Program-made: the position numbers and the translations under genes
DNA from: Gammaproteobacteria bacterium
Lineage (GTDB): Bacteria > Pseudomonadota > Gammaproteobacteria > UWMA-0217
Assembly: GCA_026981985.1 (NCBI GenBank)
Contig: JALSHZ010000101.1
Span: 1-53,998, forward strand
Reading direction: 5' to 3'
DNA: 53,998 nt
The notes under the pieces: generated by a model
What the model was told of the DNA's origin: nothing
Database searches by the model: none
Seen by the model: only the letters and a program-made list of their open reading frames with translations
Shown here: one piece after another, positions 10,004 through 40,351 of the stretch
How the letters are laid out: every line of letters begins with the position of its first letter
Numbering within the stretch: position 1 is the first letter of the stretch

Positions 10004-10076
10004 CAATGCCTTTTTCGTGATCGGCGGGGTTAGCACTCCGCAGGTCTGATTGCAGACACAAACGGGTAACGACGAC

Positions 10077-12539: not shown

Positions 12540-12620
12540 GATGTCAGTCTTCCGTTCAGGTGAGAAACGGCCACGTTTGGGGCACAATCGTAGCTTCGCG
12601 AACTTTAGCAGACAACTTCG

Positions 12621-13520: not shown

Positions 13521-13556
13521 GGTTTGGCATCCCAACGATATGAAAGAGGCGATGTG

Positions 13557-13760: not shown

Positions 13761-13963
13761 AGGCTGTCAGCGGCAAGCGTTTCTGCAAGCTCATCGAAAA
13801 GGCGGGCTGGGAATTGAAACGAATAAACGGCAGTCACCACATTTATGCAAAACCTGGCCGGGATGCTCGCATTTCTGTGCCAGTTCATGGAAATGCCCCG
13901 TTGAAGACTGGGTTGCAGCGGCATTTGATGAAAGTCGCCGGAATTGACGATGGGGATTTGTAA
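13757..13963 (+). CDS. hicA: HicA family mRNA interferase toxin
   Basis: HicA is a small double-stranded-RNA-binding-like RNase that degrades mRNA. The 68-residue product has the family pattern FCKLIEKAGWELKR, the catalytic-histidine motif GSHHIY and the downstream VPVHGNAPLKTGLQRHLMK. The start is a TTG that overlaps the hicB TGA; no in-frame ATG precedes the conserved part. This coupling would keep toxin translation tied to antitoxin translation. Confidence 0.85.
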   Translation: MKAVSGKRFCKLIEKAGWELKRINGSHHIYAKPGRDARISVPVHGNAPLKTGLQRHLMKVAGIDDGDL

Positions 13964-14049
13964 GAGACAACGATGCCTGTCACACGACTGCTGTGCCGCA
14001 GTCGATACATAGCGGTGGGTAATATCGTTTACGACAAGGAAAAGTTCAA

Positions 14050-24908: not shown

Positions 24909-26378
24909 CTACTTTACGTCGATCATCTCAACGGTGCCATCGGGAAGCACTTCCGCCATCTGACCTTCCGGCTCATCGAGGAACACGACGATCAGCAAGA
25001 AAACGAAAGCCGAAATCAGGCCAATGAACATGAAGAATTGATCGTAGTCCACCAGCGAGTTGACTGTCAGGAACATGACCGCACCGACGTTGCCAAAGGC
25101 ACCGGCCATACCGGCGATCTGCCCGGTCATGCGGCGCTGGATCAGCGGCACCATCGCATAGACTGCGCCCGAACCAGCCTTGGAAAAGATGCCACCGATG
25201 ATGGTGAGACCGACGACCATGATCACAGGCCAGTCCTTATCGACGAAGCCGAGGGCGACGAAGCTGGCGGTGATGCCGGCGAAGACGATCATCAGCGTCA
25301 GTTTGCGGCCAATCTTGTCGCTGATCCAGCCACCACCGGGGCGGGCAACCAGGTTGATGAAGGGGTAGATTCCCGCCAGCAGTGCTGCCGATACCTTCGG
25401 GATGTCGAACCACGAAACGTAGAACATCGCCAGCATCGAAACCACCGCCAGTTCGGTGCCGAAGGTCACCAGGTAGGCCCAGTCGAGAATCGCAACCTGC
25501 TTGAATTTGTAGCGGTGCAGCTCAGGTACTGGCTCTTTGAGGATGTGTTTGTTGATGCTCCAGATCTTCCAGGTTTGAAACAGAAACAGCGCCACGAGCA
25601 CCAGGTAGACGATATCGGCCATGGCGGTGCTGATCAGCCCCATTTTCACCGGCGACAGCTTCCATGTCAGTAGTGCCAGTGCCGCATAGAGCGGGATATT
25701 CATCAGAATATAGATCACCAGGTCGCCGACGCTTGTCACCTCCATGCCACCGCTTTTCTTGGGTTTGAAGTAGGTCGAGCCTTTCGGTGTATTGGAGACG
25801 ATGAAGTAATACAGCGCGCCATAGGCCATGGCGGCGATGCTGGCGAAAGTGATGGCATAGCGCCATCCCTCATCGCCGCCGAAGTTGGCCGCGATAAAAG
25901 GCAGTGTCATGGCAGCACCGGCTGAACCGAAGTTACCCCAGCCGCCGTAGATGCCTTGGGCAGTGCCGGTCTGACGCGCCGGAAACCATTCGCTGATCAT
26001 GCGAATGCCGACGACGAAGCCTGCGCCGATGAATCCGGACAGAAAGCGCAGCACCGCCAGTGTCTCGTAGTCATCCGCCCAGGCAAAAGCAATGCTGATT
26101 GCGCCGCCCAGAATCAGAATGCTCGAAAACATGATGCGTGGGCCGTATTTGTCCACCAGCATGCCGACGATAATACGTGCAGGAATGGTCATCGCCACGT
26201 TGAGAATCAGCAGCACCTTGGCCTGCTGGTCGGTCAGGTCCAGTGCCTCCTTGATAAACGGCATCATCGGCCCGAGCCCGAGCCAGACGACGAAGGTCAT
26301 GAAGAATGCAAACCAGGTGTAGTGAAGAATGCGAATATTGGGTTTGGACAGGTTGAATATGTTGAGTCGTTCAGCCAT
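24909..26378 (-). CDS. nasA: Nitrate/nitrite transporter of the major facilitator family (NarK/NasA type)
   Basis: The 489-residue protein has about 12 membrane segments and the NarK/NasA nitrate signatures: FMTFVVWLGLGPMMPF in the first helix, GGWGNFGSAGAAM (glycine-rich nitrate motif) in helix 5 and GAFGNVGAVMFLTV in helix 11. The absence of a fused second copy and the link to nirBD/nasC favour an uptake role in assimilation. AGGAGAA precedes the ATG. A perfect sigma-54 promoter lies 42-57 bases upstream. Confidence 0.92.
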   Translation of the reverse strand: MAERLNIFNLSKPNIRILHYTWFAFFMTFVVWLGLGPMMPFIKEALDLTDQQAKVLLILNVAMTIPARIIVGMLVDKYGPRIMFSSILILGGAISIAFAWADDYETLAVLRFLSGFIGAGFVVGIRMISEWFPARQTGTAQGIYGGWGNFGSAGAAMTLPFIAANFGGDEGWRYAITFASIAAMAYGALYYFIVSNTPKGSTYFKPKKSGGMEVTSVGDLVIYILMNIPLYAALALLTWKLSPVKMGLISTAMADIVYLVLVALFLFQTWKIWSINKHILKEPVPELHRYKFKQVAILDWAYLVTFGTELAVVSMLAMFYVSWFDIPKVSAALLAGIYPFINLVARPGGGWISDKIGRKLTLMIVFAGITASFVALGFVDKDWPVIMVVGLTIIGGIFSKAGSGAVYAMVPLIQRRMTGQIAGMAGAFGNVGAVMFLTVNSLVDYDQFFMFIGLISAFVFLLIVVFLDEPEGQMAEVLPDGTVEMIDVK

Positions 26379-26714: not shown

Positions 26715-29147
26715 ATGAAAGAAAATCTCGTCCTGATTGGAAACGGAATGGCCGGCATGCGCACCATCGAGGAGCTGCTCAAGCTCGCGCCGGAGAAATA
26801 CAACATCACCGTCTTCGGTGAAGAGCCTTACGGCAACTACAACCGCATCATGCTGTCGCCGGTGCTGGCCAACGAGAAGACGCTCGACGAGATCATGCTC
26901 AATGATGAGCAGTGGTATGCCGATAATAATATCAAGCTGGAAAAGGGCAAGAAGGTCGTTGAGATCAATCGTGCCCGACGCGAAGTCATCGCCGAAGATG
27001 GCACGGTTGCACCCTACGACAGGCTGATCATCGCCACTGGCTCCACCTCGTTCATGCTGCCGCTGCCCGGCGCGGATAAGTACGGTGTCATCGGCTTCCG
27101 TGATGTTGCCGATGTGGACATGATGATCGAGGCAGCGCAGCAGTACAAAAAGGCGGTCGTGATCGGTGGTGGTCTGCTTGGTCTCGAAGCGGCCAACGGT
27201 CTGATGAAGCAGGGCATGGATGTCACCGTGGTGCATCTGCTCGACACCCTGATGGAGCGTCAGCTCGACAAGCCAGCCGCAAAAATGCTGCAACAGTCAC
27301 TGGAAGACCGGGGCATGAAATTCCTCATGGATCACGCCACCGAGGAGATTCTCGGTGATGACCGCGTGACCGGCCTGCGTTTTACCAATGGCGACGAGGT
27401 CGAGGCCGATCTGGTGGTCATGGCGGTCGGTATCAAACCCAATATCGAGCTGGCACAAAAGGCTGGTTTGCACTGCGAGCGCGGCATTGTCGTCAGCGAC
27501 ACCATGCAGACCTTCGATCCCCGTATCTGGTCTGTGGGTGAGTGTGTGCAGCACCGCGGTGTGACCTACGGCTTGGTGGCACCGTTGTTCGAGCAGGCCA
27601 AGGTTGCAGCGAATCACCTCGCCGAGTTTGGTATTGCCCGCTACGAAGGCACGGTGACGTCGACCAAGCTCAAGGTCACTGGTATCGAACTCTTTTCCGC
27701 CGGCGATTTTCATGGTGACGAGACCACCGAAGAACTGCTGTTCCACGATGTTGCGGGTGGTACCTATAAAAAGCTGGTGCTCAAAGACAATATCATTATC
27801 GGTGCAGTGCTCTACGGCGACACCGTCGATGGCACTTGGTACTTCCAGTTGATGCGCGATGGCACCGATGTATCAGATTTTCGCAATACACTGCTATTCG
27901 GTCAGGCACACCTTGGGGACGCTGGTCACGGTGATGAAACCCGGGTAGCCGCAATGCCAGACGATGCCGAGATTTGTGGCTGTAATGGCGTCTGCAAAGG
28001 TGAGATCGTACAGGCGATCACCGACAAGAAACTCTTTACGCTGGAAGAGGTCCGCGCCCACACCAAGGCATCGGCTTCCTGCGGCTCTTGTACCGGCCTG
28101 GTCGAATCCCTGCTGGCGCATACGCTGGGTGGTGACTATTCCGAAGCACCGAGCAAAAAGCCGATGTGTGGCTGTACCGATTACAGTCATGATGAAGTCC
28201 GCGCGGCGATCCGCGAACATGGTCTGAAGTCACAGGAAGAAATCCGCCAGATGATGGAGTGGAAAACGCCGGATGGTTGCGCCGCTTGCCGCACCGCACT
28301 GAATTACTATCTGCTCTGCGAATATCCCGGCTACGACGATCCCGAATCACGTTTCATCAATGAACGGGCCCACGGCAATATTCAAAAAGATGGCAGTTAT
28401 TCGGTCGTGCCACGGATGTTTGGTGGGCTGTGTACGCCGCAGGAGCTACGAGCGATTGCCGATGTCGCGGAAAAATACGATGTCAAGGAGATGAAAGTCA
28501 CCGGCGGTCAGCGCATCGACATGTTCGGCATCAAAAAAGAAGATCTGCCTGCGATGTGGAAAGACCTCTCAGAAGCCGGTTTTGTCTCAGGTCACGCCTA
28601 CGGCAAGGCGATGCGGACCTGCAAAACCTGTGTCGGCAAAACCTGGTGCCGCATGGGAACGCAGGACTCCACCGGCCTTGGCGTCAAACTCGAAGAGCTG
28701 ACCTGGGGATCGTGGATGCCGCATAAGTTCAAACTGGCGGTGTCGGGTTGCCCGCGTAACTGTGCTGAAGCGACGATCAAGGATTTTGGTGTCGTCTGCG
28801 TCGATTCCGGCTACGAGCTGCATATCGGCGGTAACGGCGGCATCAAGGTGCGCGTCACCGATTTTCTGACCAAGGTAGATACCGAAGAAGAGGTGCTGGA
28901 ATGGTGTGGCGCATTCTGTCAGCTGTATCGTGAAGATGCCCATTACCTGGAACGTACCGCACCGTGGGTCGAGCGTGTCGGGCTGCAAAAGATCAAGGAT
29001 ATTCTCGAAGACGAAAAGCAGCGCAAGACATTGCATGAGCGTTTTCTCGTCTCGCAAAAACCGGCGCAGATCGACCCCTGGAAAGCTTATGCCGAAGGTG
29101 AGCGTAGCGATCACTTTTTCGAGCCGATCAAGCTCAAGGTTTCTTAA
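26715..29147 (+). CDS. nirB: NAD(P)H-dependent nitrite reductase, large subunit
   Basis: NirB with NirD reduces nitrite to ammonium in the cytoplasm. The 810-residue protein shows, in order, an FAD-binding domain (IGNGMAGMRTIEELL at the N-terminus), an NAD-binding motif (VVIGGGLLGLEAA, about 140-155), a [2Fe-2S] BFD-like domain (CGCNGVCKGEI and ASCGSCTG, about 420-475) and the sirohaem/4Fe-4S part with CVGKTWC (about 640) and the second cysteine pair in GCPRNC (about 680). All ligands are present. GGAG precedes the ATG. It is the first gene of a long plus-strand operon. Confidence 0.95.
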   Translation: MKENLVLIGNGMAGMRTIEELLKLAPEKYNITVFGEEPYGNYNRIMLSPVLANEKTLDEIMLNDEQWYADNNIKLEKGKKVVEINRARREVIAEDGTVAPYDRLIIATGSTSFMLPLPGADKYGVIGFRDVADVDMMIEAAQQYKKAVVIGGGLLGLEAANGLMKQGMDVTVVHLLDTLMERQLDKPAAKMLQQSLEDRGMKFLMDHATEEILGDDRVTGLRFTNGDEVEADLVVMAVGIKPNIELAQKAGLHCERGIVVSDTMQTFDPRIWSVGECVQHRGVTYGLVAPLFEQAKVAANHLAEFGIARYEGTVTSTKLKVTGIELFSAGDFHGDETTEELLFHDVAGGTYKKLVLKDNIIIGAVLYGDTVDGTWYFQLMRDGTDVSDFRNTLLFGQAHLGDAGHGDETRVAAMPDDAEICGCNGVCKGEIVQAITDKKLFTLEEVRAHTKASASCGSCTGLVESLLAHTLGGDYSEAPSKKPMCGCTDYSHDEVRAAIREHGLKSQEEIRQMMEWKTPDGCAACRTALNYYLLCEYPGYDDPESRFINERAHGNIQKDGSYSVVPRMFGGLCTPQELRAIADVAEKYDVKEMKVTGGQRIDMFGIKKEDLPAMWKDLSEAGFVSGHAYGKAMRTCKTCVGKTWCRMGTQDSTGLGVKLEELTWGSWMPHKFKLAVSGCPRNCAEATIKDFGVVCVDSGYELHIGGNGGIKVRVTDFLTKVDTEEEVLEWCGAFCQLYREDAHYLERTAPWVERVGLQKIKDILEDEKQRKTLHERFLVSQKPAQIDPWKAYAEGERSDHFFEPIKLKVS

Positions 29148-29307: not shown

Positions 29308-29619
29308 ATGAGTGAATGGCTGGAAATAACGACGCTGGATCAGATTCCCGTGCTGGGGTCGCGTGTGGTCGAAACCGATACGATGAATGTCGCGATTTTT
29401 CGTGGTCGTGACGACACCGTCTATGCAATAAAAGATGCCTGTCCGCACAAGAATGGGCCGTTGTCCCAGGGCATCATGCATGGTCACTCGGTGACCTGCC
29501 CGCTGCACAACTGGAAAATCGATCTCACCACCGGCGAGGCCATGGGACCCGATGAGGGTTGCACCAATGTTTTCGAGACCAAGGTCGAAAACGGTACGGT
29601 TTTTCTGCGGCTGCCATAG
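29308..29619 (+). CDS. nirD: Nitrite reductase small subunit (Rieske-type)
   Basis: NirD is the small subunit of assimilatory nitrite reductase. The 103-residue protein has complete Rieske [2Fe-2S] ligands: CPHKNGP and CPLHNW, 15-17 residues apart. The ATG at 29308 gives the family's usual length; the frame upstream runs through the hairpin repeat and is not protein-like. It ends 10 bases before nasC. The 160-base gap from nirB is unusually long and is filled partly by the repeat. Confidence 0.94.
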   Translation: MSEWLEITTLDQIPVLGSRVVETDTMNVAIFRGRDDTVYAIKDACPHKNGPLSQGIMHGHSVTCPLHNWKIDLTTGEAMGPDEGCTNVFETKVENGTVFLRLP

Positions 29620-29629: not shown

Positions 29630-32284
29630 ATGGCCGTCAAGACCACCTGTCCCTACTGTGGCGTTGGCTGCGGCGTCATCGCTTCGCTGGACGAGGATGG
29701 CGTCGTCACCGTCAAGGGCGACCCCGATCATCCTGCCAATCGCGGTCGTCTCTGTTCCAAAGGCACGGCGTTGGGCGAGACGGTCTATTTGCAGGAGCGC
29801 CTGCTGTACCCGGAGATTGCTGATCAGCAAGTCAGTTGGGAACAGGCCATCGCAACTGTGGCGGGGCGGTTTCGCGACATCATCGACGAACATGGCCCGG
29901 ATGCGGTCGCATTTTATGTGTCCGGGCAGTTACTGACGGAAGATTACTACGTCGCCAACAAGTTGATGAAAGGCTTTATCGGCTCGGCGAATATCGACAC
30001 CAATTCCCGGCTTTGCATGTCATCGGCGGTTGCCGGTTACAAGCGCGCCTTTGGCGAAGATGTGATGCCCTGTAGTTATGACGATATCGACCGGGCAAAA
30101 ATGATCGTCATCACCGGCAGCAATATGGCATGGTGCCATCCGGTGATTTTCCAGCGCATTGTGCGCGCCAAAAAAGCCAATCCCGATCTTTTTGTTGTTG
30201 TCATCGATCCGCGCAAAACCCAGACGGCGAGCGTCGCCGACTTGCACCTGGCGCTGGAGCCGGGTAGCGACAGCGTCTTGTTCAATGGTCTGCTGGCCCA
30301 TCTCGATGCGTCAGACGAGCGCAATGAGCTGTTTACCGAGAATTTCACCTTGGGAATGACGGCGGCGCTCGAGGCGGCAAGGAAATCGGCGCCCGATGTG
30401 GCATCAGTTGCACGGCAATGCGGTCTTAGCGACAGTGATGTTGCCGAGTTTTTCCGCATGTTTGCGCGTACCGAACGCGTATTGACGTTCTATTCGCAAG
30501 GGATAAATCAGTCGAGTAGCGCCGTCGACAAGGTCAACAGCATCATCAATTGCCATCTGCTTACCGGCCGCATCGGCCGCCCTGGCATGGGGCCTTTTTC
30601 CCTCACCGGGCAGCCGAACGCCATGGGTGGGCGTGAAGTCGGGGGATTGGCGAACCAGCTTGCTGCGCATATGGAACTGTCAAACCCGATCCATCGTGAG
30701 CGGCTACAGCGTTTCTGGCAGTCGCCGGTGATGTCTGACAAGGACGGGCTCAAAGCCGTTGATCTGTTCAGGGCCGTTGATGCGGGCAAGGTGAAAGCCG
30801 TCTGGATCATGGCGACCAATCCGGTCGTCAGCATGCCCGAAGCGGATGCTGTCAAGGCAGCGCTCGAAAAATGCGAGTTTGTGGTGGTATCGGATTGCGT
30901 GCGTGAGACCGACACCGTGCGTTTGGCGGATGTTCGCCTGCCGGCGCTGACCTGGGGCGAGAAGGATGGCACTGTCACCAATTCCGAGCGTTATATATCG
31001 CGAACACGCCGTTTTCTGCCACTGCCTGGCCAGGCGCGTCCAGACTGGTGGATTATTAGCGAAGTTGCGCGCCAGATGGGGTTTGGCGAGCAGTTTTCCT
31101 ATCGTTCTGCGCACGATATTTTTCGCGAGCATGCAGCACTGTCGGGTTTTGAGAACGATGGTGAACGCAGTTTCGATATCAGTGCCCTGGCGGATATCAG
31201 CTGGGAAGAGTACGGGGCATTCAACCCCGTACAGTGGCCGGTTAATGCGGAAAATCCGCAAGGCAAGGCACGTATCTATGGCGATGGGCGTTTCAATACC
31301 GAAGATGGCAAGGCACGATTTATCGCCGTCACGCCACGGCCGCCGGTAAGAAAACCCGATCGTGAGTTTCCGTTTGTTTTGAACACCGGGCGAGTTCGCG
31401 ATCAGTGGCACACAATGACCCGTACCGGGATGTCTCCGCGGCTGTCGCAGCATATTCCAGAGCCATATATTGAAATGCATCCTGAAGATGCGACAGCGCA
31501 GCAGTTGAATGAGGATGATCTCGTTGCCGTCAGCAGTTCGCGCGGTGAGATCTATGTGCGCGTCAAGATTGGCAAAGGGCAGCGCAAAGGAAGTGTGTTC
31601 GTACCGATGCACTGGAACGGGGTTTTTTCCGGCAAGGGGCGCGTCAATACGCTGGTCGAGGCGAATGTCGATCCGATTTCCGGGCAGCCGGAATCGAAAC
31701 ACAGTGTCGCACGGATTGCGCCATGCCAACCGCGCTGGCATGGATTCATCCTGACTCGTCGCAATCGCCTCAATCTGGAATATTCCACTTACTGGACGCG
31801 CTCCCGCGCCACTGGATTGTGGCGTTACGAAATCGCCGGACGGGAGACACCCGATGATTGGGCCGACCGCGCCCGTGTGCTGCTCAGTGATGAAAATGAC
31901 GCCGATGCCAATTGGGTCGAATTCTTCGATAAACACCAGAATCACTATCGCGCCGCGCGTTTTATCGGTGAGCAGCTGGAAAGCTGCGTATTCATCGGTG
32001 CAAGCGCCGTGTTGCCGGAACGCGACTGGCTGGTCAGCCTGTTTATGAAAGAAAAGCTGGAACCCGCCGAGCGCCAAAGCCTGCTCACCGGCAAGCCACC
32101 GCTGGATCATGTGGATGTGGGTCGTATCGTCTGCGCCTGTTTCAATGTGGGCGAAAAAACGATCAAAAAAGCCATTGCCGAGCATGGGCTCAAGACACCC
32201 GAGCAAATTGGTGAGCTGTTACAGGCGGGAACGAATTGTGGTTCCTGCATACCTGAATTACGCGAGTTTCTGGCGACGCCATAG
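29630..32284 (+). CDS. nasC: Assimilatory nitrate reductase catalytic subunit
   Basis: This cytoplasmic molybdenum enzyme reduces nitrate to nitrite. The 884-residue product has the N-terminal 4Fe-4S cysteines (CPYCGVGCGV, then C at about 42), the molybdenum-ligand cysteine in SRLCMSSAVAGYKRAFG (about 125-135), the molybdopterin domains with SLTGQPNAMGGREVG, and a C-terminal BFD-like [2Fe-2S] domain (CACFNVGEK, CGSCIPEL). There is no Tat signal, as expected for the assimilatory type. The BFD tail suggests electrons come from a flavoprotein or NAD(P)H-linked partner; no separate reductase subunit lies nearby. The symbol nasC follows Pseudomonas usage; nasA is used elsewhere. Confidence 0.92.
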   Translation: MAVKTTCPYCGVGCGVIASLDEDGVVTVKGDPDHPANRGRLCSKGTALGETVYLQERLLYPEIADQQVSWEQAIATVAGRFRDIIDEHGPDAVAFYVSGQLLTEDYYVANKLMKGFIGSANIDTNSRLCMSSAVAGYKRAFGEDVMPCSYDDIDRAKMIVITGSNMAWCHPVIFQRIVRAKKANPDLFVVVIDPRKTQTASVADLHLALEPGSDSVLFNGLLAHLDASDERNELFTENFTLGMTAALEAARKSAPDVASVARQCGLSDSDVAEFFRMFARTERVLTFYSQGINQSSSAVDKVNSIINCHLLTGRIGRPGMGPFSLTGQPNAMGGREVGGLANQLAAHMELSNPIHRERLQRFWQSPVMSDKDGLKAVDLFRAVDAGKVKAVWIMATNPVVSMPEADAVKAALEKCEFVVVSDCVRETDTVRLADVRLPALTWGEKDGTVTNSERYISRTRRFLPLPGQARPDWWIISEVARQMGFGEQFSYRSAHDIFREHAALSGFENDGERSFDISALADISWEEYGAFNPVQWPVNAENPQGKARIYGDGRFNTEDGKARFIAVTPRPPVRKPDREFPFVLNTGRVRDQWHTMTRTGMSPRLSQHIPEPYIEMHPEDATAQQLNEDDLVAVSSSRGEIYVRVKIGKGQRKGSVFVPMHWNGVFSGKGRVNTLVEANVDPISGQPESKHSVARIAPCQPRWHGFILTRRNRLNLEYSTYWTRSRATGLWRYEIAGRETPDDWADRARVLLSDENDADANWVEFFDKHQNHYRAARFIGEQLESCVFIGASAVLPERDWLVSLFMKEKLEPAERQSLLTGKPPLDHVDVGRIVCACFNVGEKTIKKAIAEHGLKTPEQIGELLQAGTNCGSCIPELREFLATP

Positions 32285-32308: not shown

Positions 32309-34513
32309 ATGTTGTTTGGACGTGGCAAGAAAAAAAGTATCAATATCGCCGATAAAAAGGTCGTGGAGTGGAAATACTCCACCTGTGGTTATTGTTCGAC
32401 TGGCTGCGCCATCGAAGTGGGCATCAACAACGAAGGCAAGCCGGTGGCGTCGCGTGGCGTTGGCGGCGCCGATGTCAATCGTGGCAAGCTCTGCGTCAAG
32501 GGGATTTTCGAGCATGAACTGTTCGAATCGTCCGGACGCGGCGACAACCCGCTGATTCGCGAACACATCCACGAAGGCTATCGCGAGACTGACTGGGACA
32601 GTGCGCTGGAACACATGAAAGATGAAATTCTCCGCATCCAGAAAACCTGGGGCCGAGACTCGTTCGCCATCGTCTCGACTGGACAGTTGCTGACCGAAGA
32701 ATTCTATACCCTCGGTAAACTCACCCGTGCGGTGATTGGCACCAACAACTACGACGGAAACACCACGCTGTGCATGGCCTCAGCCGTTTCAGGTTACAAA
32801 CGCTCCTTTGGGTCCGATGGGCCACCGGGCAGCTATGAAGATTTCGAGCACACCGACTGCCTGATCGCCTGGGGTTCCAACCTCGCGGAACAGCACCCGA
32901 TCATCTACTGGCGGCTCAAAGAGGCGCAGGAAAAGCGCAAATTTCCGATGATCGTGGTTGATCCGCGCACCACCATGCTGGCGCAGAACGCCGATATCCA
33001 TCTGGCCATCACGCCGGGCACCGACGTGGTGCTCATGAACGCGATGATGCACGTCATCCTCGATGAGGGCCTGGAGGATCGGGATTATATCGAAGCCAAT
33101 ACGGTAGGTTTCGAGCAGGTCGAGCAGGAGGTGCAGAAATATGATCCTGCCACCGCCGCGAAAATCTGTGGCATCGATGAGGATACGATCCGTAATGTCG
33201 CCAGGATTTTTGCCAAGGCCGATGCTGCGATGCAGATCTGGACCATGGGCATCAACCAGAGTACACACGGCAGCGATGGCGTCGTCGGCATCAACAACCT
33301 CGCCCTGAGCACCGGCAATATCGGCAAGCCGGGGGGCACTGCGTTATCGATCACTGGGCAGTGTAATGCCATGGGCACCCGGGAGTGGTCATCCTGCTCC
33401 GGACTGCCGGGCTACCGGCTGCTGGAAAAACCGGAGGATCGCGAAGAAATTGCCCAATTCTGGGGCGTTGATCCAGAATTCTTTCCGAAACAGCGGGGTC
33501 TCACCGAAACCGACATTTTTCCCGCCATCGAAACGGGGCAGATCAAAGGGCTGTGGCTGGTCGCCACCAACCCGATGACATCAATGGCCAACACCAGCCG
33601 CATTCGCCGTATGCTGGAAAAGCTGGAATTTCTCGTCGTGCAGGATTCCTACGCCGATGTGGAGACGACGCAATATGCCCACCTCTACCTGCCCGCAGCA
33701 ACCTGGGCCGAGAAGGAGGGCGTGTTCACCAATACCGAGCGCCGGGTCAATATCGTGCGTCAGGCAACGCAGCCGCATGGCAACTCGAAATCGGACCTGT
33801 GGATTTTCACCGAGCTGGCCAAGCATTTCGAACAGGGGCGGAAAATCCGTTTTCCGGAAAAACCGGCCGAAGTGTTCGAAGAGATGCGCGAATTGTCGAA
33901 AGGGCGACTGGTCGATATCTCCGGCATGGACCACGATCTGATCGAAGAGAAGCGGGGGATTCAATGGCCCTATACCGAAGCGGAGCGTCAGGCGGGCACG
34001 GAGCCGGTCAAAGGGGGGAAACGTCTGTACACCGAGGAACGCAGCTTCCGCTACCCCGATGGCCGCGCCAAAATGATTCCGTTGCCGTTCATCGACAATA
34101 ACGAAGTACCCGATGACGAATACCCCTACTGGCTCAATACTGGCCGCGTCGTCGAGCATTTCCACACCCGAACCAAGACCGGAAAACTTGGCAACAACAA
34201 CAAATACAGCCCAATACCCTATATGGAGATCAACCCCGACGCGGCCGCCGACATGGGTATTCGCAACGGTGAATATGTTCGCTGTGTCTCGCGCCGTGGT
34301 GACGCCATCGTCATGGCGCAGTTGACCCAACGGGTACCGCACAACATGGTGTTCATCCCGTTTCATTATCACGATTGCGTCAACCGCCTGACCCTGGGAC
34401 TGCTCGACCCGCACTCCCGCCAGCCTGCGTTCAAACAGTCGGCGGTTCGCATCGAGTTAGTGGAGGATCAGGTCGAGGCCGCGAAGTTGAGCATGGAGCG
34501 ACGGGAGTTTTGA
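32309..34513 (+). CDS. Second nitrate-reductase-like cytoplasmic molybdoenzyme
   Basis: The 734-residue protein belongs to the same Nas/Nap/Fdh branch of molybdopterin enzymes as NasC but lacks the BFD tail. It shows an N-terminal 4Fe-4S site (CGYCSTGCAI, then C at about 60) and the likely molybdenum-ligand cysteine in TTLCMASAVSGYKRSFG, as in nitrate reductases, not the selenocysteine/cysteine-His pattern of formate dehydrogenases. SITGQCNAMGTREW follows. There is no Tat signal, so it is cytoplasmic. GGAGGAAG precedes the ATG, 24 bases after nasC. A matching iron-sulfur/membrane subunit lies downstream, suggesting it is the catalytic part of a membrane-attached complex. The substrate could be nitrate or another oxyanion. 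Confidence 0.85.
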   Translation: MLFGRGKKKSINIADKKVVEWKYSTCGYCSTGCAIEVGINNEGKPVASRGVGGADVNRGKLCVKGIFEHELFESSGRGDNPLIREHIHEGYRETDWDSALEHMKDEILRIQKTWGRDSFAIVSTGQLLTEEFYTLGKLTRAVIGTNNYDGNTTLCMASAVSGYKRSFGSDGPPGSYEDFEHTDCLIAWGSNLAEQHPIIYWRLKEAQEKRKFPMIVVDPRTTMLAQNADIHLAITPGTDVVLMNAMMHVILDEGLEDRDYIEANTVGFEQVEQEVQKYDPATAAKICGIDEDTIRNVARIFAKADAAMQIWTMGINQSTHGSDGVVGINNLALSTGNIGKPGGTALSITGQCNAMGTREWSSCSGLPGYRLLEKPEDREEIAQFWGVDPEFFPKQRGLTETDIFPAIETGQIKGLWLVATNPMTSMANTSRIRRMLEKLEFLVVQDSYADVETTQYAHLYLPAATWAEKEGVFTNTERRVNIVRQATQPHGNSKSDLWIFTELAKHFEQGRKIRFPEKPAEVFEEMRELSKGRLVDISGMDHDLIEEKRGIQWPYTEAERQAGTEPVKGGKRLYTEERSFRYPDGRAKMIPLPFIDNNEVPDDEYPYWLNTGRVVEHFHTRTKTGKLGNNNKYSPIPYMEINPDAAADMGIRNGEYVRCVSRRGDAIVMAQLTQRVPHNMVFIPFHYHDCVNRLTLGLLDPHSRQPAFKQSAVRIELVEDQVEAAKLSMERREF

Positions 34514-34528
34514 GGTTTGGTGGTGTGC

Positions 34529-34625
34529 CCCCCTTCCTAACCCTCCCCCTGGCAGGGGGAGGGAATAACTAATTTTCCCTCTCCCCGCCGGGGAGAGGGT
34601 TAGGGTGAGGGGGTGCGAGCGCTGC
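34529..34625. repeat. GC-rich hairpin repeat array (copy 2), left of DUF559 gene
   Basis: Two perfect 10-bp hairpins lie in tandem: CCCTCCCCCT/AGGGGGAGGG (34541-34563) and CCCTCTCCCC/GGGGAGAGGG (34577-34599), followed by TTAGGGTGAGGGGGTGCGAGCGCTGCTCGC. The type matches the nirB-nirD repeat and the array at 34981-35060. Confidence 0.8.
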
Positions 34626-34654
34626 TCGCTTGTTTCCACAGACGCCTGAATAAC

Positions 34655-34989
34655 ATGAAGCTGATCAAATCCGCCCGCCAACTCAAAAAAACCAGACCGA
34701 AGCCGAAAAACGCATCTGGTATCAACTCCGAGCCAGACAGTTGGCAGGCCATAAATTTCGGCGACAGCATCCGATAGGGCCATATATTGTGGATTTTGTT
34801 TGCACAAAAGAGAAACTGGTTGTTGAACTCGATGGTGGGCAGCATATGGATGCCATCGAATATGATGGAAAAAGAACGCAGTTTCTGGAGGCAAAGGGGT
34901 ATACAGTATTACGTTTTTGGAATAATGAAGTGATGGAGAATCTCGAAGGGGTGTTGGAAATGATTCGGCGGCGTCTACCCCCTCCCTAA
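34655..34989 (+). pseudogene. DUF559 endonuclease-like protein, frameshifted
   Basis: Two frames join to one DUF559 protein. The first, from ATG at 34655, reads MKLIKSARQLKK. In a run of seven A (34685-34691) the reading must move back one base to continue as NQTEAEKRIWYQLRARQLAG, then HKFRRQHPIGPYIVDFVC, VVELDGGQH and TVLRFWNNEV, the restriction-enzyme-like core. One extra A would give a normal protein of about 111 residues. It could be a true frameshift, programmed or polymerase slippage on the A run, or a sequencing error. DUF559 proteins resemble Vsr-type nucleases; their job is unknown. It is boxed in by hairpin repeats and splits the molybdoenzyme operon. Confidence 0.8.
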
Positions 34990-35060
34990 AACTCTCCCTG
35001 GCAGGGGGAGGGCATTGACTCCTTCTCCCCCATTGGGGGAGAAGGCTGGGATGAGAGGGA
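34981..35060. repeat. GC-rich hairpin repeat array (copy 3), right of DUF559 gene
   Basis: CTCTCCCTG/CAGGGGGAG (near-perfect) and the perfect 11-bp hairpin CCTTCTCCCCC/GGGGGAGAAGG (35021-35045) follow the DUF559 stop, ending with GGCTGGGATGAGAGGG. It is the counterpart of copy 2 on the other side of the gene. The rest of the gap to 35167 holds nothing I recognise. Confidence 0.8.
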
Positions 35061-35166
35061 AACGAGCGCAGCTCATCAAAACCACCACAGCACTGCGATA
35101 CACCAAAGTAACCAAAAGCCCTCACCCAATCCATGACAAGGGTCCAACCAAACCAAAGAGCAAACC

Positions 35167-37065
35167 ATGTTCAACGTAAGATCCGACGAACCAAAATATG
35201 CATTTCTCTGGGATAAGGAGACGAAGCAGACCAATCGTTACGGCGATAGCATCGAAACCGTTCCGGAGTCGCACGAGCTGCGGCAGCAGCCATTCGTCAT
35301 CAACGATGAAGTACAGGAGCAGAAAAACCCCAACCGCTATAAGCAGCATGGCTTCTTTTTCAATGCCGATAACTGCATTTTCTGCCATGCCTGCGAGGCG
35401 GCGTGTTCAGAGAAAAATGACAACCCACCACATATCGCGTTTCGTTCAGTCGGCTTCCTCGAAAGTGGCGTCCACCCCAACTACACGCGGCTGTCGATTT
35501 CGATGGCCTGCAACCACTGTGATGATCCGGTTTGCCTGAAGGGTTGCCCAACGCGCGCTTACACCAAGTTCGCAGAATATGGCGCTGTGTTGCAGGACCC
35601 GGACACCTGTTTTGGCTGCGGTTATTGTACCTGGGTGTGTCCCTATAACGCGCCGCAGCTAGATCCGGTCAAAGGGCAGGTGAGTAAGTGCAATATGTGT
35701 GTCGACCGCCTGGAAGTGGGGTTGAAGCCTGCCTGTGTCGCTGCCTGTCTGGGTAATGCGCTCGATTTTGGCGTGGTCGAAAACATTCCAGAAAACAGAA
35801 TTCAAGCGGAGACTGAGATTCCCGGTTTTCCCCGCACCGATATCACCCACCCCAATATTCGTTTTCAGCAGACCCGCACGCTGCAAAAGGAGTTGACCCG
35901 CATCGATACGATGCCGGTCAAATATCAGCAGAGTCGCGATGGCGGCTATCAGTCGGTGGTGGACAAAAAACACGGCAAGGAGAGGTCCTGGGGGATTAAA
36001 ACCCTGCTGGCTTCCCACGAAAACGCCCACGTCATTTTCACGTTGAGCGCGCAGGCGGTGATGGGGGCATTTTTGATGATATTGCTCGGTTCCTGGTTTG
36101 GCATCGCCGATTTGGTTCGGGTGCGCGAATCAGCTGCGTTTTTGCCACTGTTGGGTAGCATGTTGGCGCTGATGGGCTTTGGCCTGTTCAAATTGAATAT
36201 GCACCTTGGCAAGCCGCACCGCTTCTACCGTGGCTTCAATAATTTGCGTCTGTCACCACTTAGCCGTGAAATTGCAGGCGTATCAGCTTTTTTTGCTGGC
36301 TTGGTTGGCTACGCATTTTTCTCGCTGTTCGACAACGCCTTCGCCAACTTGCTGGCCAATGTGACCGGATTGCTGGCCTTGGCCGGTTTCGCCGCTGGCT
36401 CTTATTACATGTACAAGCTCTATCGCATTCCGGCCCGACCGTTCTGGGATCATTGGCAAACGGCAACGGCTTTCTACGGCAGTATGCTGGTGCTAGGTAG
36501 TGTGCTGATCGGTATCGTTGCGCTCATTTTCATGCCCGCCTCTGATGTACCGGTGGCAACGCTCAGTGCAATGGCGCTTGTCGGTTTGCTGGTCGAAGCA
36601 GTTGGGCTGTTCTTCCATGCGCGTGATCTGGTGGCAGGTCAGGGTGAAGGCGCGGCAGCGCATTATCAGCAGACAACGGCATTTGGCAAAACCTACTGGC
36701 TGCGCAATATTCTGATGGCGGTCAATGGCATCATGTTACTGGTTTTGCCGTTGATTGGTGTCACCAGTGTCGCGGGTTTGCTGCTTGCATCGGCGCTGGC
36801 GGTGTCACTGCTGCTGATGGCCTATCTGGAGCGCATTATTTTTTATGCCCTGGTCATTCCAACCACGATGCCGGGCGCTTTTTTCTGGCGCAATAAGGGG
36901 TTTGTCGAACACGCGCGAGAAGTCGGGCTGGCGGATATGGAGCAGGTGGGCGTCGTGCATGAGCGCCATCATAAGTTCAAGCTTGACGAACTGTTGCAGA
37001 CGGTTCGTGAAAACAGCGTTCGCGATATGCTCGACCATGTGAAGTGGATACTCACCGGTAAGTGA
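35167..37065 (+). CDS. Fused four-cluster ferredoxin (DmsB-like) and DmsC-like membrane anchor
   Basis: The 632-residue protein combines the electron-transfer and membrane subunits of DMSO-reductase-type complexes. Residues about 65-210 carry 16 cysteines for four [4Fe-4S] clusters: CIFCHACEAAC, CNHCDDPVCLKGC, CFGCGYCTWVC and CNMC...CVAAC. From about 285 onward are eight or so membrane helices of the DmsC/NrfD-like quinol-handling type. There is no signal peptide or Tat motif, so the clusters face the cytoplasm, where they could pass electrons from quinol to the cytoplasmic molybdoenzyme encoded upstream. The ribosome binding site is weak. RavA/ViaA-like genes follow by 19 bases. Confidence 0.85.
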   Translation: MFNVRSDEPKYAFLWDKETKQTNRYGDSIETVPESHELRQQPFVINDEVQEQKNPNRYKQHGFFFNADNCIFCHACEAACSEKNDNPPHIAFRSVGFLESGVHPNYTRLSISMACNHCDDPVCLKGCPTRAYTKFAEYGAVLQDPDTCFGCGYCTWVCPYNAPQLDPVKGQVSKCNMCVDRLEVGLKPACVAACLGNALDFGVVENIPENRIQAETEIPGFPRTDITHPNIRFQQTRTLQKELTRIDTMPVKYQQSRDGGYQSVVDKKHGKERSWGIKTLLASHENAHVIFTLSAQAVMGAFLMILLGSWFGIADLVRVRESAAFLPLLGSMLALMGFGLFKLNMHLGKPHRFYRGFNNLRLSPLSREIAGVSAFFAGLVGYAFFSLFDNAFANLLANVTGLLALAGFAAGSYYMYKLYRIPARPFWDHWQTATAFYGSMLVLGSVLIGIVALIFMPASDVPVATLSAMALVGLLVEAVGLFFHARDLVAGQGEGAAAHYQQTTAFGKTYWLRNILMAVNGIMLLVLPLIGVTSVAGLLLASALAVSLLLMAYLERIIFYALVIPTTMPGAFFWRNKGFVEHAREVGLADMEQVGVVHERHHKFKLDELLQTVRENSVRDMLDHVKWILTGK

Positions 37066-37084
37066 TCCTCACTGGAGCAGACAA

Positions 37085-38605
37085 ATGAAAACACGGTTGC
37101 GCAATCTGATCGCGCAGGTCTCCGCCGGTCTGATCGAGCGGGAAGAGCCGGCGCGGCTGGCGCTGCTGTCGGCATTGGCGGGTGAACATCTGCTGCTAAT
37201 CGGTCTTCCCGGCACGGCCAAGAGTGTGATGGCGCGCCGTCTGCACCAGGCGTTTCGTGACAGCCGCTATTTCGAGCGCCTGTTGACGCGCTTTTCCGTA
37301 CCGGAGGAGCTGTTCGGGCCGCTGTCGATCAAAGCACTCGAGGATGACCGCTACGAACGCCAGACCGAACACTATCTACCCACCGCCAGCGTGGCGTTCA
37401 TCGATGAAATATTCAAGGCCAACAGCGCCATTCTCAATGCCTTGCTGACGCTGCTGAACGAGCGCGAGTTCGACAACGGCTCGCGGCGCTTCAAGACGCC
37501 ATTGATCGCGGTGGTTGCCGCCAGCAATGAATTGCCGGAGGAGGGCGAGCTGGACGCGCTCTACGACCGTTTCCTCTGTCGTTTTGAGGTGGCGCCCGTG
37601 TCGGCGGAGAAGTTCGTCGATCTATTGCAACTCGAGGAGGTGCCTTGTCAGATCGAACCGCAGCTGGCATTGGCGCCCGGTGAACTGGAAGCAATCCAGC
37701 AGGGCGCCGGGCAGGTTGGGTTGCCCGAAGATGTGAGAGCGTTATTGCAGGCATTACGTGAATTTTTACAGCAGCAGAATATCTATGTCTCTGACCGGCG
37801 TTGGCGCAAGGCCGTGAAGCTGTTGAAAATATCGGCGCATACCAATGACCGTGCAGCGGTTTCCATTTGGGACTGTGCATTGCTGCAGCACTGCCTGTGG
37901 CACCGGCCCGAGCAACGCAAGGTCATCTCGCGCTGGTATCAGCAGCATATTGGCGTTGGCAGCGGCTTCAATGGCGAGCGGCTGAAAAAACTGCTCGCGG
38001 TGTGGGAGGCGGCGCTCGAGGAGGATGCCAGCAGTAAAACGCCCATGCGTAATGCACGCAATGAGCTGCTTTATCTCGATGAGAAAAATAATCCCACGAC
38101 AGTGCGAAAAGTGCGGCGGCTGCGAGAGCGCGATGGCGAGCCGCTCTACCTCGCACCCCCAGATCAGAGCGACCGTACCAACGATAATCAGGGCTATACC
38201 GCCGCGGAGTTGCGTGAACAATTTTTCGATGATGTCTATGGTCAGTGCCATATCGACGGGGAGTGGCAGAGCATCGACCGCTATATTTCCCGAAACAAAA
38301 ACCGCTTGGTCGAATACACCGAAAATCCGCCGGCAATGGAACCGACGGTCCACGACCCCGCATTCATCGATTCGCGCTTGCGTGAAACCGGCAACCTGCT
38401 GGATGAAATTCGGCAGCTCAAAGTTCGGCTGGTGCTGCAGCTGCGATCGCTCGATGAGGAGGATGGTGCCCATCTCTGGGTTGATCAGCAATTCATTGAT
38501 GGTTCACGGAATTATTTGCAGCAGAATATCGATGAGGTGGGCAAAGTGATCAGCCGTCTCGAAGCCATCCACGAGCGCTACAAAACCCTGCCCGTGCGGG
38601 CCTGA
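37085..38605 (+). CDS. MoxR-family AAA+ ATPase, RavA-like
   Basis: MoxR ATPases act with VWA proteins as chaperone-like machines that activate or assemble metalloenzymes. The 506-residue protein has Walker A (GLPGTAKS, about 40), Walker B (VAFIDEIFKAN, about 105), sensor 1 (AASNELPEEGELDALYDRF) and a long C-terminal region with helical, coiled-coil-like sequence. Length and the sequence around SVPEELFGPLSI fit the RavA subfamily (498 residues in E. coli). GGAG precedes the ATG. It is followed after 15 bases by its VWA partner. In E. coli, RavA-ViaA influences respiratory complexes such as fumarate reductase; here it is linked to a molybdoenzyme. Confidence 0.88.
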   Translation: MKTRLRNLIAQVSAGLIEREEPARLALLSALAGEHLLLIGLPGTAKSVMARRLHQAFRDSRYFERLLTRFSVPEELFGPLSIKALEDDRYERQTEHYLPTASVAFIDEIFKANSAILNALLTLLNEREFDNGSRRFKTPLIAVVAASNELPEEGELDALYDRFLCRFEVAPVSAEKFVDLLQLEEVPCQIEPQLALAPGELEAIQQGAGQVGLPEDVRALLQALREFLQQQNIYVSDRRWRKAVKLLKISAHTNDRAAVSIWDCALLQHCLWHRPEQRKVISRWYQQHIGVGSGFNGERLKKLLAVWEAALEEDASSKTPMRNARNELLYLDEKNNPTTVRKVRRLRERDGEPLYLAPPDQSDRTNDNQGYTAAELREQFFDDVYGQCHIDGEWQSIDRYISRNKNRLVEYTENPPAMEPTVHDPAFIDSRLRETGNLLDEIRQLKVRLVLQLRSLDEEDGAHLWVDQQFIDGSRNYLQQNIDEVGKVISRLEAIHERYKTLPVRA

Positions 38606-38620
38606 GCGGGCGGTGTCGCC

Positions 38621-40351
38621 GTGAGCCTGGAGGCCTTCGAAGCCCGTTTTGCTATTCTCGATCAAATACCTGAGGCGCTTTTTTCCAGTGTCGTCACCCA
38701 CACTCACGGCGAATTACTGACGCGTGCGGAGGGCGTGTTGCAATGGCGTGAGGCACTGTTGCAGGGTGAGCTGCCGGATGAAAAAAACCTTTGCTGGCCG
38801 GATAAATCACTGCGCCGGGTGATTCTGATGCGGCTGGAGGCGCTCGATATCGTGCGCTACTGCAAGGATGAACGGGCGCTGACTGACTCTATCCTTGAAA
38901 CCGTCCTCGAAGGCATCAGCAGCGCAGAGGACTATTTCAGCAAGGCGGGGGCGTTTGACGATCAGCTCGCGCAACGCCAGAAAATGCGCGACCGTGATTC
39001 GGTCTTCGAAGACGAGGAGGGTATTTCCGAGCATGCTGAATCCGGCAGCTCGCAGCCCGATGGTGGTGACCCTGATGATGCTTCTTCTGACGGTGAAGCG
39101 GGGAGTGATCCGGCTGCTGCTGGCGGCGGCAGCGGCATGCAAGCCAAATCCTCTGCCGACATCACTGCAAATATCGAAAACCAAATGTCGTCTGAAGACA
39201 GTAGGGAGATCGCGACTGCATCAGAAGTGATCGCAGATCAATCGGCACCACCACAAGCGGACGCCGATGCCACCGCGGCGCTCGACCAGTCAGGCGTTGG
39301 CCGCAATCTTCAAGCGCTGAACGATACCTTCGAGGGGCAGTGGGGCGAGTTGGCCATGAGCTGGAAGGCGCTGTCTGGCGTGCTTGATGAGCTGGGCGGA
39401 TTCCTCGGACGTGGCTGGGATCTTACGCGTGGTGTGCTGGCATCGCAGGGCTGGCGTGATATCGCACGCTATCGGAAATTGATGCGTGATATTCCAGAAC
39501 TCAAGCAACTGGTCGATGTGCTCGGGCGGATGCGTGGTGCCAATAATGGCGACACAGCAGAAACGTTGGTGGCACAATTCAGTGAGCCGTTGCGCAGAGT
39601 GCCGGAAAATCCACCGCGCGGCTTTTCACCCCATGCCATCGACACCACCGAAGGCATCAAACTGAGTGACGATATCGCCCGCATGCTGCCGGTCGAATCG
39701 GCCTTGCTCGGCCATCCCAAACTCAACACGCTTTGGCATGCACGCCGTGCCGAAAGCATGTTGCGCTGCTATCAACTGCATGGCGTGCTTTCCGAGCACA
39801 GCCCGATGCCGGAACCCGAAGAGCAACAAACCAGCAGTCAATCCCCAGAAAATCCTGGTCACGGCCCCATTATCGTCTGCCTCGACAGCTCGGCTTCGAT
39901 GCAAGGCAAGCCGGAAACCATCGCCAAAGCCGTCACCCTTGAAGCCCTGCGCATCGCCGCGGAAGAAAAACGCGACTGCTGCGTCATCACCTTCAGCGGC
40001 GAACAGCAGATGATCTCCTGGCAACTCGACTTCAGCCGCCATGGCTACCGTGCGCTGCTAGATTTTTTACAACATAGTTTTCACGGCGGCACCGACGTCA
40101 GCAGCGCTCTGACCGCCGCGCTGGAGAAAAATACTGAAGCAGGATGGGAACAGGCCGATATCTTGCTGGTCAGTGATGGCCGCTTCCCCAGTCCCGAGTC
40201 GATCGAACCCCAACTCAAAAAAGCTAAAGAAAAAACCGGCCTGCGCCTGCACGGCCTGCTGATTGGCCGCTGGCGAGGCGACGCCATGACCCGCCTGTGC
40301 GATCGACTGCACCGTTTCGATCTGTGGAGCAGGCCTGTGGAATTGGGCTAG
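38621..40351 (+). CDS. VWA-domain protein, ViaA-like partner of the MoxR ATPase
   Basis: The 576-residue protein ends in a von Willebrand factor A domain with a complete metal site: DSSASM (about residue 425), a threonine in GGTDVSSAL and VSDGRF. The N-terminal half is helical, with an acidic low-complexity linker (about 130-220; many D, E, S, G) and a conserved middle region (WDLTRGVLASQGWRDIARYR) as in ViaA. It is longer than E. coli ViaA (483), mostly because of the linker. The start is GTG (MSLEAFEARF). It closes the operon; a hairpin follows 54 bases later. Confidence 0.87.
   Translation: MSLEAFEARFAILDQIPEALFSSVVTHTHGELLTRAEGVLQWREALLQGELPDEKNLCWPDKSLRRVILMRLEALDIVRYCKDERALTDSILETVLEGISSAEDYFSKAGAFDDQLAQRQKMRDRDSVFEDEEGISEHAESGSSQPDGGDPDDASSDGEAGSDPAAAGGGSGMQAKSSADITANIENQMSSEDSREIATASEVIADQSAPPQADADATAALDQSGVGRNLQALNDTFEGQWGELAMSWKALSGVLDELGGFLGRGWDLTRGVLASQGWRDIARYRKLMRDIPELKQLVDVLGRMRGANNGDTAETLVAQFSEPLRRVPENPPRGFSPHAIDTTEGIKLSDDIARMLPVESALLGHPKLNTLWHARRAESMLRCYQLHGVLSEHSPMPEPEEQQTSSQSPENPGHGPIIVCLDSSASMQGKPETIAKAVTLEALRIAAEEKRDCCVITFSGEQQMISWQLDFSRHGYRALLDFLQHSFHGGTDVSSALTAALEKNTEAGWEQADILLVSDGRFPSPESIEPQLKKAKEKTGLRLHGLLIGRWRGDAMTRLCDRLHRFDLWSRPVELG

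What the first reader, a model, noticed from the sequence alone, without database searches (positions are those of the whole stretch)
32309..40351. Candidate new system: cytoplasmic molybdoenzyme + ferredoxin-DmsC fusion + RavA/ViaA-type pair
Seen: four plus-strand genes encode a Tat-less nitrate-reductase-like molybdoenzyme, a 16-cysteine ferredoxin fused to a DmsC-like membrane anchor, a MoxR ATPase with complete Walker motifs and a VWA protein with an intact metal site. Known: MoxR/VWA pairs (NorQ/NorD, CbbQ/CbbO, RavA/ViaA) activate or assemble metalloenzymes, often from the same operon. Inference: this is a quinol-linked cytoplasmic reductase with its own maturation machine. All catalytic parts face the cytoplasm, which differs from DMSO reductase (exported) and Nar (different subunits).
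Basis: partly seen in the sequence, partly recalled or inferred. Interest (0 to 1): 0.85.

Follow-up and report, generated by a model that had tools for sequence, protein, structure and literature searches.

The report
Membrane-wired nitrate reductase with dedicated chaperone
This bacterium carries a little-described nitrate-reducing enzyme that appears to draw electrons straight from the membrane quinone pool on the inside of the cell, and in one branch of its family it travels with its own AAA+ motor pair, which makes the unknown client of such motor pairs testable.

Summary
The four genes are real and intact. They end a seven-gene nitrate-to-ammonia operon: nirB-nirD-nasA-moA-fdC-moxR-vwa, opposite a NarK-type transporter.

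MoA is a Nas/Nap-lineage molybdoenzyme with a nitrate-reductase active-site signature and no signal peptide. FdC is a four-cluster ferredoxin fused to an 8-helix DmsC-like anchor. Its loop charges put the iron-sulfur part in the cytoplasm. nirB-moA-fdC is widespread: fdC occurs in 59 of 369 sampled Gammaproteobacteria, 50 of 59 loci also carry nirB, and narG is rare there. A 2020 phylogeny stated that no member of the Nas/Nap/soluble-FDH clade has such electron-transfer and anchor subunits, so MoA-FdC is an exception.

The ATPase/VWA pair is RavA-ViaA-like but distinct, with its own insert domain. In the class sample, all nine full-length ATPase copies lie beside fdC. Of 37 loci with the insert domain found among 84,980 species, 26 have fdC directly upstream and 6 more have fdC or moA elsewhere in the genome. 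On the MoA tree the pair was gained once and lost twice, so it is a client-linked accessory, not a universal part.

Whether it matures, repairs or brakes the enzyme is untested. Verdict: new variant of a known kind.

The parts
32309..34513 (+). moA: Nas/Nap-type bis-MGD nitrate reductase catalytic subunit (734 aa), Cys-Met active site, no signal peptide, no BFD domain
35167..37065 (+). fdC: four-[4Fe-4S] DmsB-like ferredoxin fused to an 8-TM DmsC-like quinone anchor, N-in/C-in
37085..38605 (+). moxR: RavA-type MoxR AAA+ ATPase
38036..38344 (+). insert domain of the ATPase (about residues 318-420; motif LYLAPPDQ..R.N.G.GYT..EL...FFDD...Q.H..G.W), in the place of E. coli RavA's LARA domain; marker of the subfamily
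38621..40351 (+). vwa: ViaA-like VWA protein with intact MIDAS
26715..29147 (+). nirB: NADH nitrite reductase large subunit, same operon
   Evidence: TIGR02374 over cut-off
29308..29619 (+). nirD: nitrite reductase small subunit
   Evidence: nirB-nirD pattern in relatives
29630..32284 (+). nasA: second, soluble-type nitrate reductase with BFD [2Fe-2S] domain, grouping with Klebsiella/Azospirillum Nas
24909..26378 (-). NarK-type nitrate/nitrite MFS transporter, divergent from the operon
   Evidence: TIGR00886 307.5 bits, cut-off 311.7
34514..35166 (.). 653-bp insert-like spacer with palindromic repeats and a small ORF between moA and fdC, not part of the conserved unit

Best explanation
MoA-FdC is a membrane-bound, cytoplasm-facing quinol:nitrate oxidoreductase that feeds NirBD. 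Quinol is oxidised in the DmsC-like anchor; electrons pass through the four [4Fe-4S] clusters of the fused ferredoxin and the Fe4S4 cluster of MoA to the Mo site, where nitrate from NarK is reduced to nitrite; NirBD makes ammonia. Unlike Nar it probably conserves no energy, but it spares NAD(P)H, which is costly for lithotrophs and methanotrophs. The downstream pair forms a RavA-ViaA-like AAA+/VWA machine whose client is this complex: the VWA protein docks on the complex or its subunits, the ATPase hexamer remodels it, and the insert domain gives client or partner specificity. My first choice for its job is assembly or reactivation of the metal-containing complex. Shown: gene content, motifs, loop-charge topology, operon conservation, co-inheritance. 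Inferred: substrate, quinol as donor, physical interaction, direction of the ATPase effect.
For: Active site and surroundings of MoA follow NapA (GN.xLCMASAV.GY, MGINQ, TGQ.NA.G.R) and not formate dehydrogenase, which has Cys/Sec-His. nirB is at the same locus in 50 of 59 fdC loci and moA in 56 of 59; NarK-type transporters are common there. NarG is in only 4 of 60 such genomes. FdC: 16 invariant Cys; 8 helices; every one of 34 sequences has 7-13 K+R in loops 2-3/4-5/6-7 against 0-2 in the other loops, so N-in. Pair: 9 of 9 full-length ATPases in 369 genomes lie next to fdC, hypergeometric 4e-8 before correcting for kinship. Insert-domain scan: 37 loci, 26 with fdC in cis, 6 more with fdC or moA in the genome. 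One gain and two losses on the MoA tree, 3 changes against a minimum of 5 in 300 shuffles; ATPase-MoA distances r = 0.90. The unit stays together where nirB is a different, about 35% identical lineage. The ATPase model matches RavA over residues 1-490, Z 26.2. Precedent: RavA-ViaA binds and modulates quinol-linked fumarate reductase through the ViaA VWA domain (PMC10585395).
Against: Most moA-fdC lineages do without the pair (51 of 59 loci), so it is not essential for the enzyme. Five genomes with the insert-domain ATPase show neither fdC nor close moA (two MAGs, Thiomargarita, two Parabeggiatoa), so other clients may exist or the assemblies are incomplete. In some genomes the VWA gene lies elsewhere. 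MoA reaches no curated cut-off for nitrate reductase. Donor and substrate are not measured. The ferredoxin half of the FdC model and the AAA+ core of the ATPase model have low confidence.
Confidence: 0.62

Rival explanations
1. The ATPase/VWA pair is a brake or quality-control switch, not a maturation factor: it lowers electron flow through MoA-FdC, as E. coli RavA-ViaA does to fumarate reductase.
For: E. coli RavA-ViaA represses Frd, a cytoplasm-facing quinol-linked reductase, through ViaA binding FrdA (PMC10585395). The same overall architecture is found here. The pair is dispensable in most lineages.
Against: Nothing in the sequence decides between activation and inhibition. Other MoxR/VWA pairs (NorQ/NorD, CoxD/CoxE) are needed for activity of a metalloenzyme (PMC9976466, PMC4240915).
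Confidence: 0.27
2. The pair is an ordinary housekeeping ravA-viaA with a general envelope or respiratory role that happens to sit in this operon.
For: RavA-like sequence over residues 4-308 and ViaA-like VWA region. Five insert-domain genomes lack fdC and close moA. In L152-L154 the ATPase follows ubiU-ubiV instead.
Against: Scores are far below the RavA and ViaA cut-offs (275.6 of 681; 182.1 of 500). The insert domain is absent from E. coli RavA and from the Vibrio halioticoli homologue. Co-inheritance with MoA, r = 0.90 and 3 changes on the tree. Nearly always in the fdC operon.
Confidence: 0.08
3. MoA-FdC is a formate dehydrogenase or another oxidase donating electrons to quinone, not a nitrate reductase.
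For: The best NCBIfam score is Fdh-alpha (583 bits, cut-off 666) and the best PDB hits are FdhF-type. nasA already lies in the same operon.
Against: Cys-Met instead of Cys/Sec-His at the Mo ligand; NapA-like MGINQ and TGQ.NA.G.R motifs; nirBD and a NarK-type transporter in the operon; most loci have no nasA, leaving MoA as the only nitrate reductase candidate there.
Confidence: 0.07
4. MoA-FdC runs in reverse or takes electrons from another membrane or thiol donor rather than quinol, for example a DsrC-like carrier encoded after fdC in many loci.
For: A DsrC-family gene lies by fdC in 13 loci.
Against: None in the window's operon, and the DsrC copies printed lack a Cys at or next to the C-terminus. 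DmsC-family anchors are quinone-reactive by precedent. The nitrate/nitrite couple is too positive for efficient quinone reduction (general knowledge).
Confidence: 0.06

Closest known systems
Assimilatory nitrate reductase NasA/NasC/NarB and periplasmic NapA (catalytic subunit)
   Same: Same lineage by profile score, same Cys ligand followed by Met, N-terminal Fe4S4, in an operon with nirBD and NarK
   Different: Known members use ferredoxin, NAD(P)H flavoprotein or cytochrome partners. Wells et al. [quoted passage not shown] MoA is.
DMSO reductase DmsABC (E. coli)
   Same: DmsB-like four-cluster ferredoxin and DmsC-family anchor
   Different: Ferredoxin and anchor fused in one chain; loop charges inverted relative to DmsC; catalytic subunit of another lineage and without Tat signal
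SoeABC sulfite dehydrogenase
   Same: Three-part molybdoenzyme complex with a membrane anchor that works on the cytoplasmic side (PMC6335251)
   Different: SoeC is NrfD/PsrC-like, substrate is sulfite, subunits separate; gene context here is nitrate to ammonia
Respiratory nitrate reductase NarGHI
   Same: Quinol-linked, cytoplasm-facing nitrate reduction (inferred here)
   Different: MoA is far from NarG (55 bits, cut-off 1084), has no cytochrome b subunit, and narG is absent from 56 of 60 of these genomes
RavA-ViaA (E. coli)
   Same: AAA+ core, triple-helix bundle with an inserted domain, VWA partner encoded next door
   Different: Insert domain unrelated in sequence; below RavA/ViaA cut-offs; found with one enzyme operon rather than as a lone ravA-viaA operon
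NorQ/NorD, CoxD/CoxE and CbbQ/CbbO MoxR-VWA pairs
   Same: MoxR ATPase plus VWA protein encoded beside the metalloenzyme they serve (PMC9976466, PMC4240915)
   Different: Different MoxR subfamily: RavA-type with C-terminal bundle and insert. Not required in most members of the enzyme family

Membership tests
Nas/Nap-type nitrate reductase (catalytic subunit) | Cys Mo-ligand in LCM[AS]SAV context and NapA-like active-site motifs | tested here: met
   LCMASAV in window; LCM[AS]SAVSGYKR in 73 of 79, MGINQ in 79 of 79
Nas/Nap-type nitrate reductase (catalytic subunit) | Curated equivalog cut-off (NF047855 NasC, NF041323 NasA, NapA) | tested here: not met
   516.8 of 1100, 499.6 of 1000, 431.3 of 904 bits
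Nas/Nap-type nitrate reductase (catalytic subunit) | Reduces nitrate | not testable with these tools
   needs an assay
Formate dehydrogenase alpha | Cys/Sec-His at the active site; TIGR01591 cut-off | tested here: not met
   Cys-Met; 583.1 of 666 bits
DmsABC-type complex iron-sulfur molybdoenzyme | Four-[4Fe-4S] ferredoxin subunit and DmsC-family anchor | tested here: met
   PF13247 and PF04976 over cut-off, 16 invariant Cys, 8 TM
DmsABC-type complex iron-sulfur molybdoenzyme | DmsA-type catalytic subunit exported by Tat, periplasmic orientation | tested here: not met
   dmsA family 138.5 of 777.7 bits; no N-terminal signal in the sequence; N-in topology of FdC
SoeABC | Cytoplasm-facing orientation of molybdoenzyme with membrane anchor | tested here: met
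   loop charges in 34 FdC sequences; inference from sequence only
SoeABC | SoeA-type catalytic subunit | not tested
   no SoeA sequence was fetched
NarGHI | NarG catalytic subunit | tested here: not met
   55 of 1084 bits
RavA | RavA architecture: AAA+ core, C-terminal helical bundle with inserted domain | tested here: met
   model aligns 1-490 with 3nbx, Z 26.2, rmsd 4.9, 308 aligned
RavA | NF010054 equivalog cut-off and LARA-domain sequence | tested here: not met
   275.6 of 681 bits, match ends at residue 308; insert differs from E. coli
ViaA | C-terminal VWA domain with MIDAS | tested here: met
   DSSAS motif at about residue 420; VWA Pfam hits
ViaA | NF008230 equivalog cut-off | tested here: not met
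   182.1 of 500 bits
MoxR/VWA metalloenzyme-linked pair | Adjacent to and co-inherited with one metalloenzyme | tested here: met
MoxR/VWA metalloenzyme-linked pair | Required for activity of that enzyme | not testable with these tools
   needs deletion and assay; most moA-fdC loci lack the pair

The most novel reading that the evidence does not exclude
A previously unnamed class of quinol-driven, cytoplasm-facing assimilatory nitrate reductase: a Nas-lineage catalytic subunit wired to an inverted, fused DmsB-DmsC module. In one clade it gained a client-specific RavA-ViaA-type machine whose insert domain recognises the complex, which would make it the first RavA-ViaA-like pair with a genetically assigned client.
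Probability: 0.5. Interest if true: 0.75.

Novelty: new variant of a known kind. Interest (0 to 1): 0.6.

Why it matters
If right, many sulfur-oxidising, methane-oxidising and hydrocarbon-degrading Gammaproteobacteria reduce nitrate for assimilation with quinol rather than NAD(P)H or ferredoxin. That would change energy budgets for autotrophs that otherwise make NADH by reverse electron transport. It would also break the published generalisation that Nas/Nap-lineage enzymes never pair with the canonical electron-transfer and anchor subunits. The clade with the ATPase pair offers a natural experiment on what RavA-ViaA-type machines do: the same enzyme exists with and without the pair.

Tried and rejected
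Housekeeping ravA-viaA: rejected by cut-offs, insert domain, neighbourhood and tree. Formate dehydrogenase: best profile score but wrong active-site residues. Plasmid origin: fdC had no tblastn match at E <= 1e-40 in 72,556 plasmid records, and the plasmid ATPase homologues sit in other contexts. A link between the pair and FdC length or C-terminal extension: lengths overlap, nothing found. DsrC as partner: absent from the window, and the copies lack a Cys near the C-terminus. Tree of MoA with Nas, Nap and Fdh: MoA is one clade, but deep branches are long and unresolved, so its exact sister is not claimed. First order/family searches gave only five genomes. The ferredoxin half of the FdC model and the AAA+ core of the ATPase model were too poor to interpret. 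Literature searches for a quinol-linked Nas with a DmsC-type anchor, or a MoxR/VWA pair with nitrate reductase, found no description in the open-access library; subscription papers are not covered. I mis-took 21043-22515 for the transporter at first; it is a GMC-type oxidoreductase and the NarK-type gene is 24909-26378.
Full report
What is there. The four ORFs are intact and placed as stated. They are the last four of a co-directional run: nirB 26715-29147, nirD about 29308-29619, nasA 29630-32284, moA 32309-34513, fdC 35167-37065, moxR 37085-38605, vwa 38621-40351. Gaps are about 10, 24, 653, 19 and 15 bp from nirD onward. A NarK-type transporter (24909-26378) and a PP2C-Ser/Thr kinase fusion (23107-24825) lie divergently upstream. 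NirB is over its cut-off. nasA (884 aa) has a C-terminal BFD domain and groups with Klebsiella and Azospirillum nitrate reductases. So this genome holds two different nitrate-reductase catalytic subunits in one operon.

MoA. The profile ranking is Fdh-alpha 583 bits, NasC 517, haloarchaeal NasA 500 and NapA 431, all under their cut-offs, with DmsA (139) and NarG (55) far behind. Residue-level alignment decides the substrate class: around the Mo ligand MoA reads GNTTLCMASAVSGYKRSFGSD against GNPRLCMASAVGGYVTSFGKD in Desulfovibrio NapA, while formate dehydrogenases have C/U-H there. MGINQ and TGQ.NA.G.R are also shared with NapA only. These motifs hold across 79 MoA sequences (LCM[AS]SAVSGYKR 73, MGINQ 79). 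MoA sequences form one supported clade apart from NasA, but the deep placement is unresolved. The N-terminus (MLFGRGKKKSINIADKKVVEW) has no signal peptide.

FdC. Sixteen invariant cysteines in four sets match the DmsB four-cluster pattern, followed by a DmsC-family domain with eight confidently predicted helices. Using those helices, loops 2-3, 4-5 and 6-7 together carry 7-13 K+R in every one of 34 sequences, and loops 1-2, 3-4, 5-6 and 7-8 carry 0-2. By the positive-inside rule the N-terminal ferredoxin is cytoplasmic. E. coli DmsC aligned to it does not show this pattern: by hand count from the sequence printed, about 8 K+R lie in the loops that are empty in FdC and about 5 in the others. 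That agrees with its known periplasmic N-terminus (own knowledge). The complex is therefore inverted relative to DmsABC, like SoeABC (PMC6335251).

Spread. fdC is in 59 of 369 sampled class genomes (46 of 272 genera) and in a few genomes of another class. Of 59 loci other than the window, 56 have moA directly upstream (two of the three exceptions are contig ends) and 50 have nirB. NarK-like transporters and the kinase are frequent companions. NarG is present in 4 of 60 fdC genomes. The common unit is therefore nirBD-moA-fdC.

The ATPase pair. In the class sample, a full-length homologue of the ATPase (E 1e-137 or better) occurs in nine genomes, all nine fdC-positive and with the gene in the fdC operon (hypergeometric 4e-8, or about 2e-5 counting six families as independent). 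A tenth, the same-genus genome G002, has the ATPase cut at a contig start and moA (96% identical) on another contig. The region after residue 305 has no Pfam match. It holds a conserved insert domain inside a helical bundle: the predicted model is confident there, and the whole protein aligns with E. coli RavA 3nbx at Z 26.2. E. coli RavA and a Vibrio halioticoli homologue lack this insert sequence. A scan of 84,980 species' contigs with the C-terminal region found only 37 loci; those with named taxa are all Gammaproteobacteria (Cycloclasticus, Ca. Marithrix, Methylococcaceae, a Bathymodiolus methanotroph symbiont, Chromatiales MAGs, Thiomargarita, Parabeggiatoa) and one record is titled only 'bacterium'. 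Twenty-six have fdC directly upstream. Of the other eleven, five genomes have fdC elsewhere (one partial), G002 has moA, and five have neither fdC nor close moA (two MAGs, Thiomargarita, two Parabeggiatoa). The VWA gene is unlinked in some genomes.

Co-inheritance. On the MoA tree the pair's presence changes three times: one gain and two losses on the simplest reading, one of the losses being a 16-row clade that includes G001 of the window's own family. Three hundred label shuffles on the unbiased class set never gave fewer than five changes. Distances of the ATPase and of MoA correlate at r = 0.90, of the ATPase and FdC at 0.85, and of VWA and MoA at 0.75 (permutation p about 0.0002). Where nirB belongs to another lineage (35-36% identity: Cycloclasticus and methanotrophs), moA-fdC-moxR-vwa still stay together. 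The window and G001 share a family but carry moA of different branches, which suggests transfer of the whole unit.

Mechanism. Shown: content, motifs, topology signal, conservation, co-inheritance. Inferred: quinol is oxidised in the anchor, electrons pass through five clusters to Mo, nitrate is reduced in the cytoplasm and NirBD finishes the job. The arrangement should be electroneutral and would spare reducing equivalents for lithotrophs. For the ATPase pair two readings stand: assembly/repair, by analogy with NorQ/NorD (PMC9976466) and CoxD/CoxE, which serve another molybdoenzyme (PMC4240915); or a brake, by analogy with RavA-ViaA repressing fumarate reductase through ViaA-FrdA contact (PMC10585395). 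E. coli RavA-ViaA was also linked genetically to isc and nap-ccm genes (PMC3893208). I prefer assembly/repair but only weakly.

Novelty. Wells et al. 2020 (PMC7331816) state that none of the Nas/Aio/Nap/soluble-FDH clade is associated with the canonical four-cluster or anchor subunits; MoA-FdC contradicts this. I found no description of the complex or of its ATPase pair in the open-access library, but subscription literature could not be searched. All component kinds are known; the combination and the client-linked RavA subfamily are the new part.

Naming. moA, fdC, moxR and vwa are working labels of this report, not established gene names.

Noticed in passing
window 34514-35166: A 653-bp spacer between moA and fdC carries imperfect palindromic repeats found elsewhere in the genome and a small ORF (34741-34989) that looks like a DUF559-type endonuclease fragment (recognised by eye, not tested), possibly frameshifted. 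Relatives mostly have a gap of under 150 bp here.
   Followed up: partly
window 29630-32284: A second nitrate reductase gene (nasA with BFD domain) lies in the same operon as moA; nasA also lies near fdC in about ten other loci. Why a genome keeps both is unexplained.
   Followed up: partly
window 23107-24825: A PP2C phosphatase-Ser/Thr kinase fusion sits by the nitrate operon and recurs in 22 related loci, suggesting phospho-control of nitrate uptake or reduction.
   Followed up: partly
L068, L073, L077, L078, L080-L083, L085, L087, L088, L094, L095: A DsrC-family gene lies by fdC in 13 loci, in L078/L080 between fdC and moxR. The copies lack a Cys at or next to the C-terminus; role unknown.
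   Followed up: partly
L152, L153, L154: Here the insert-domain ATPase follows ubiU-ubiV (oxygen-independent ubiquinone synthesis) instead of fdC, with the VWA gene elsewhere or missing.
   Followed up: partly
L162, L165, L166: Thiomargarita and Parabeggiatoa carry the ATPase/VWA pair but no detectable fdC or close moA, so the pair may have another client there.
   Followed up: partly
L131 (Azoarcus plasmid pAZKH, about 11966-14859): A RavA/ViaA-like pair lies directly downstream of 2-oxoglutarate dehydrogenase genes.
   Followed up: no
L215 (Vibrio halioticoli plasmid, 6347-11019): A RavA/ViaA-like pair without the insert motif follows a sigma-54 activator gene, in a context unrelated to nitrate.
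   Followed up: no
L135, L137, L148, L157, L168: In methanotroph and Cycloclasticus-type loci nirB/nirD belong to a different lineage (about 35% identity), often with a PhzF-like gene before moA.
   Followed up: partly
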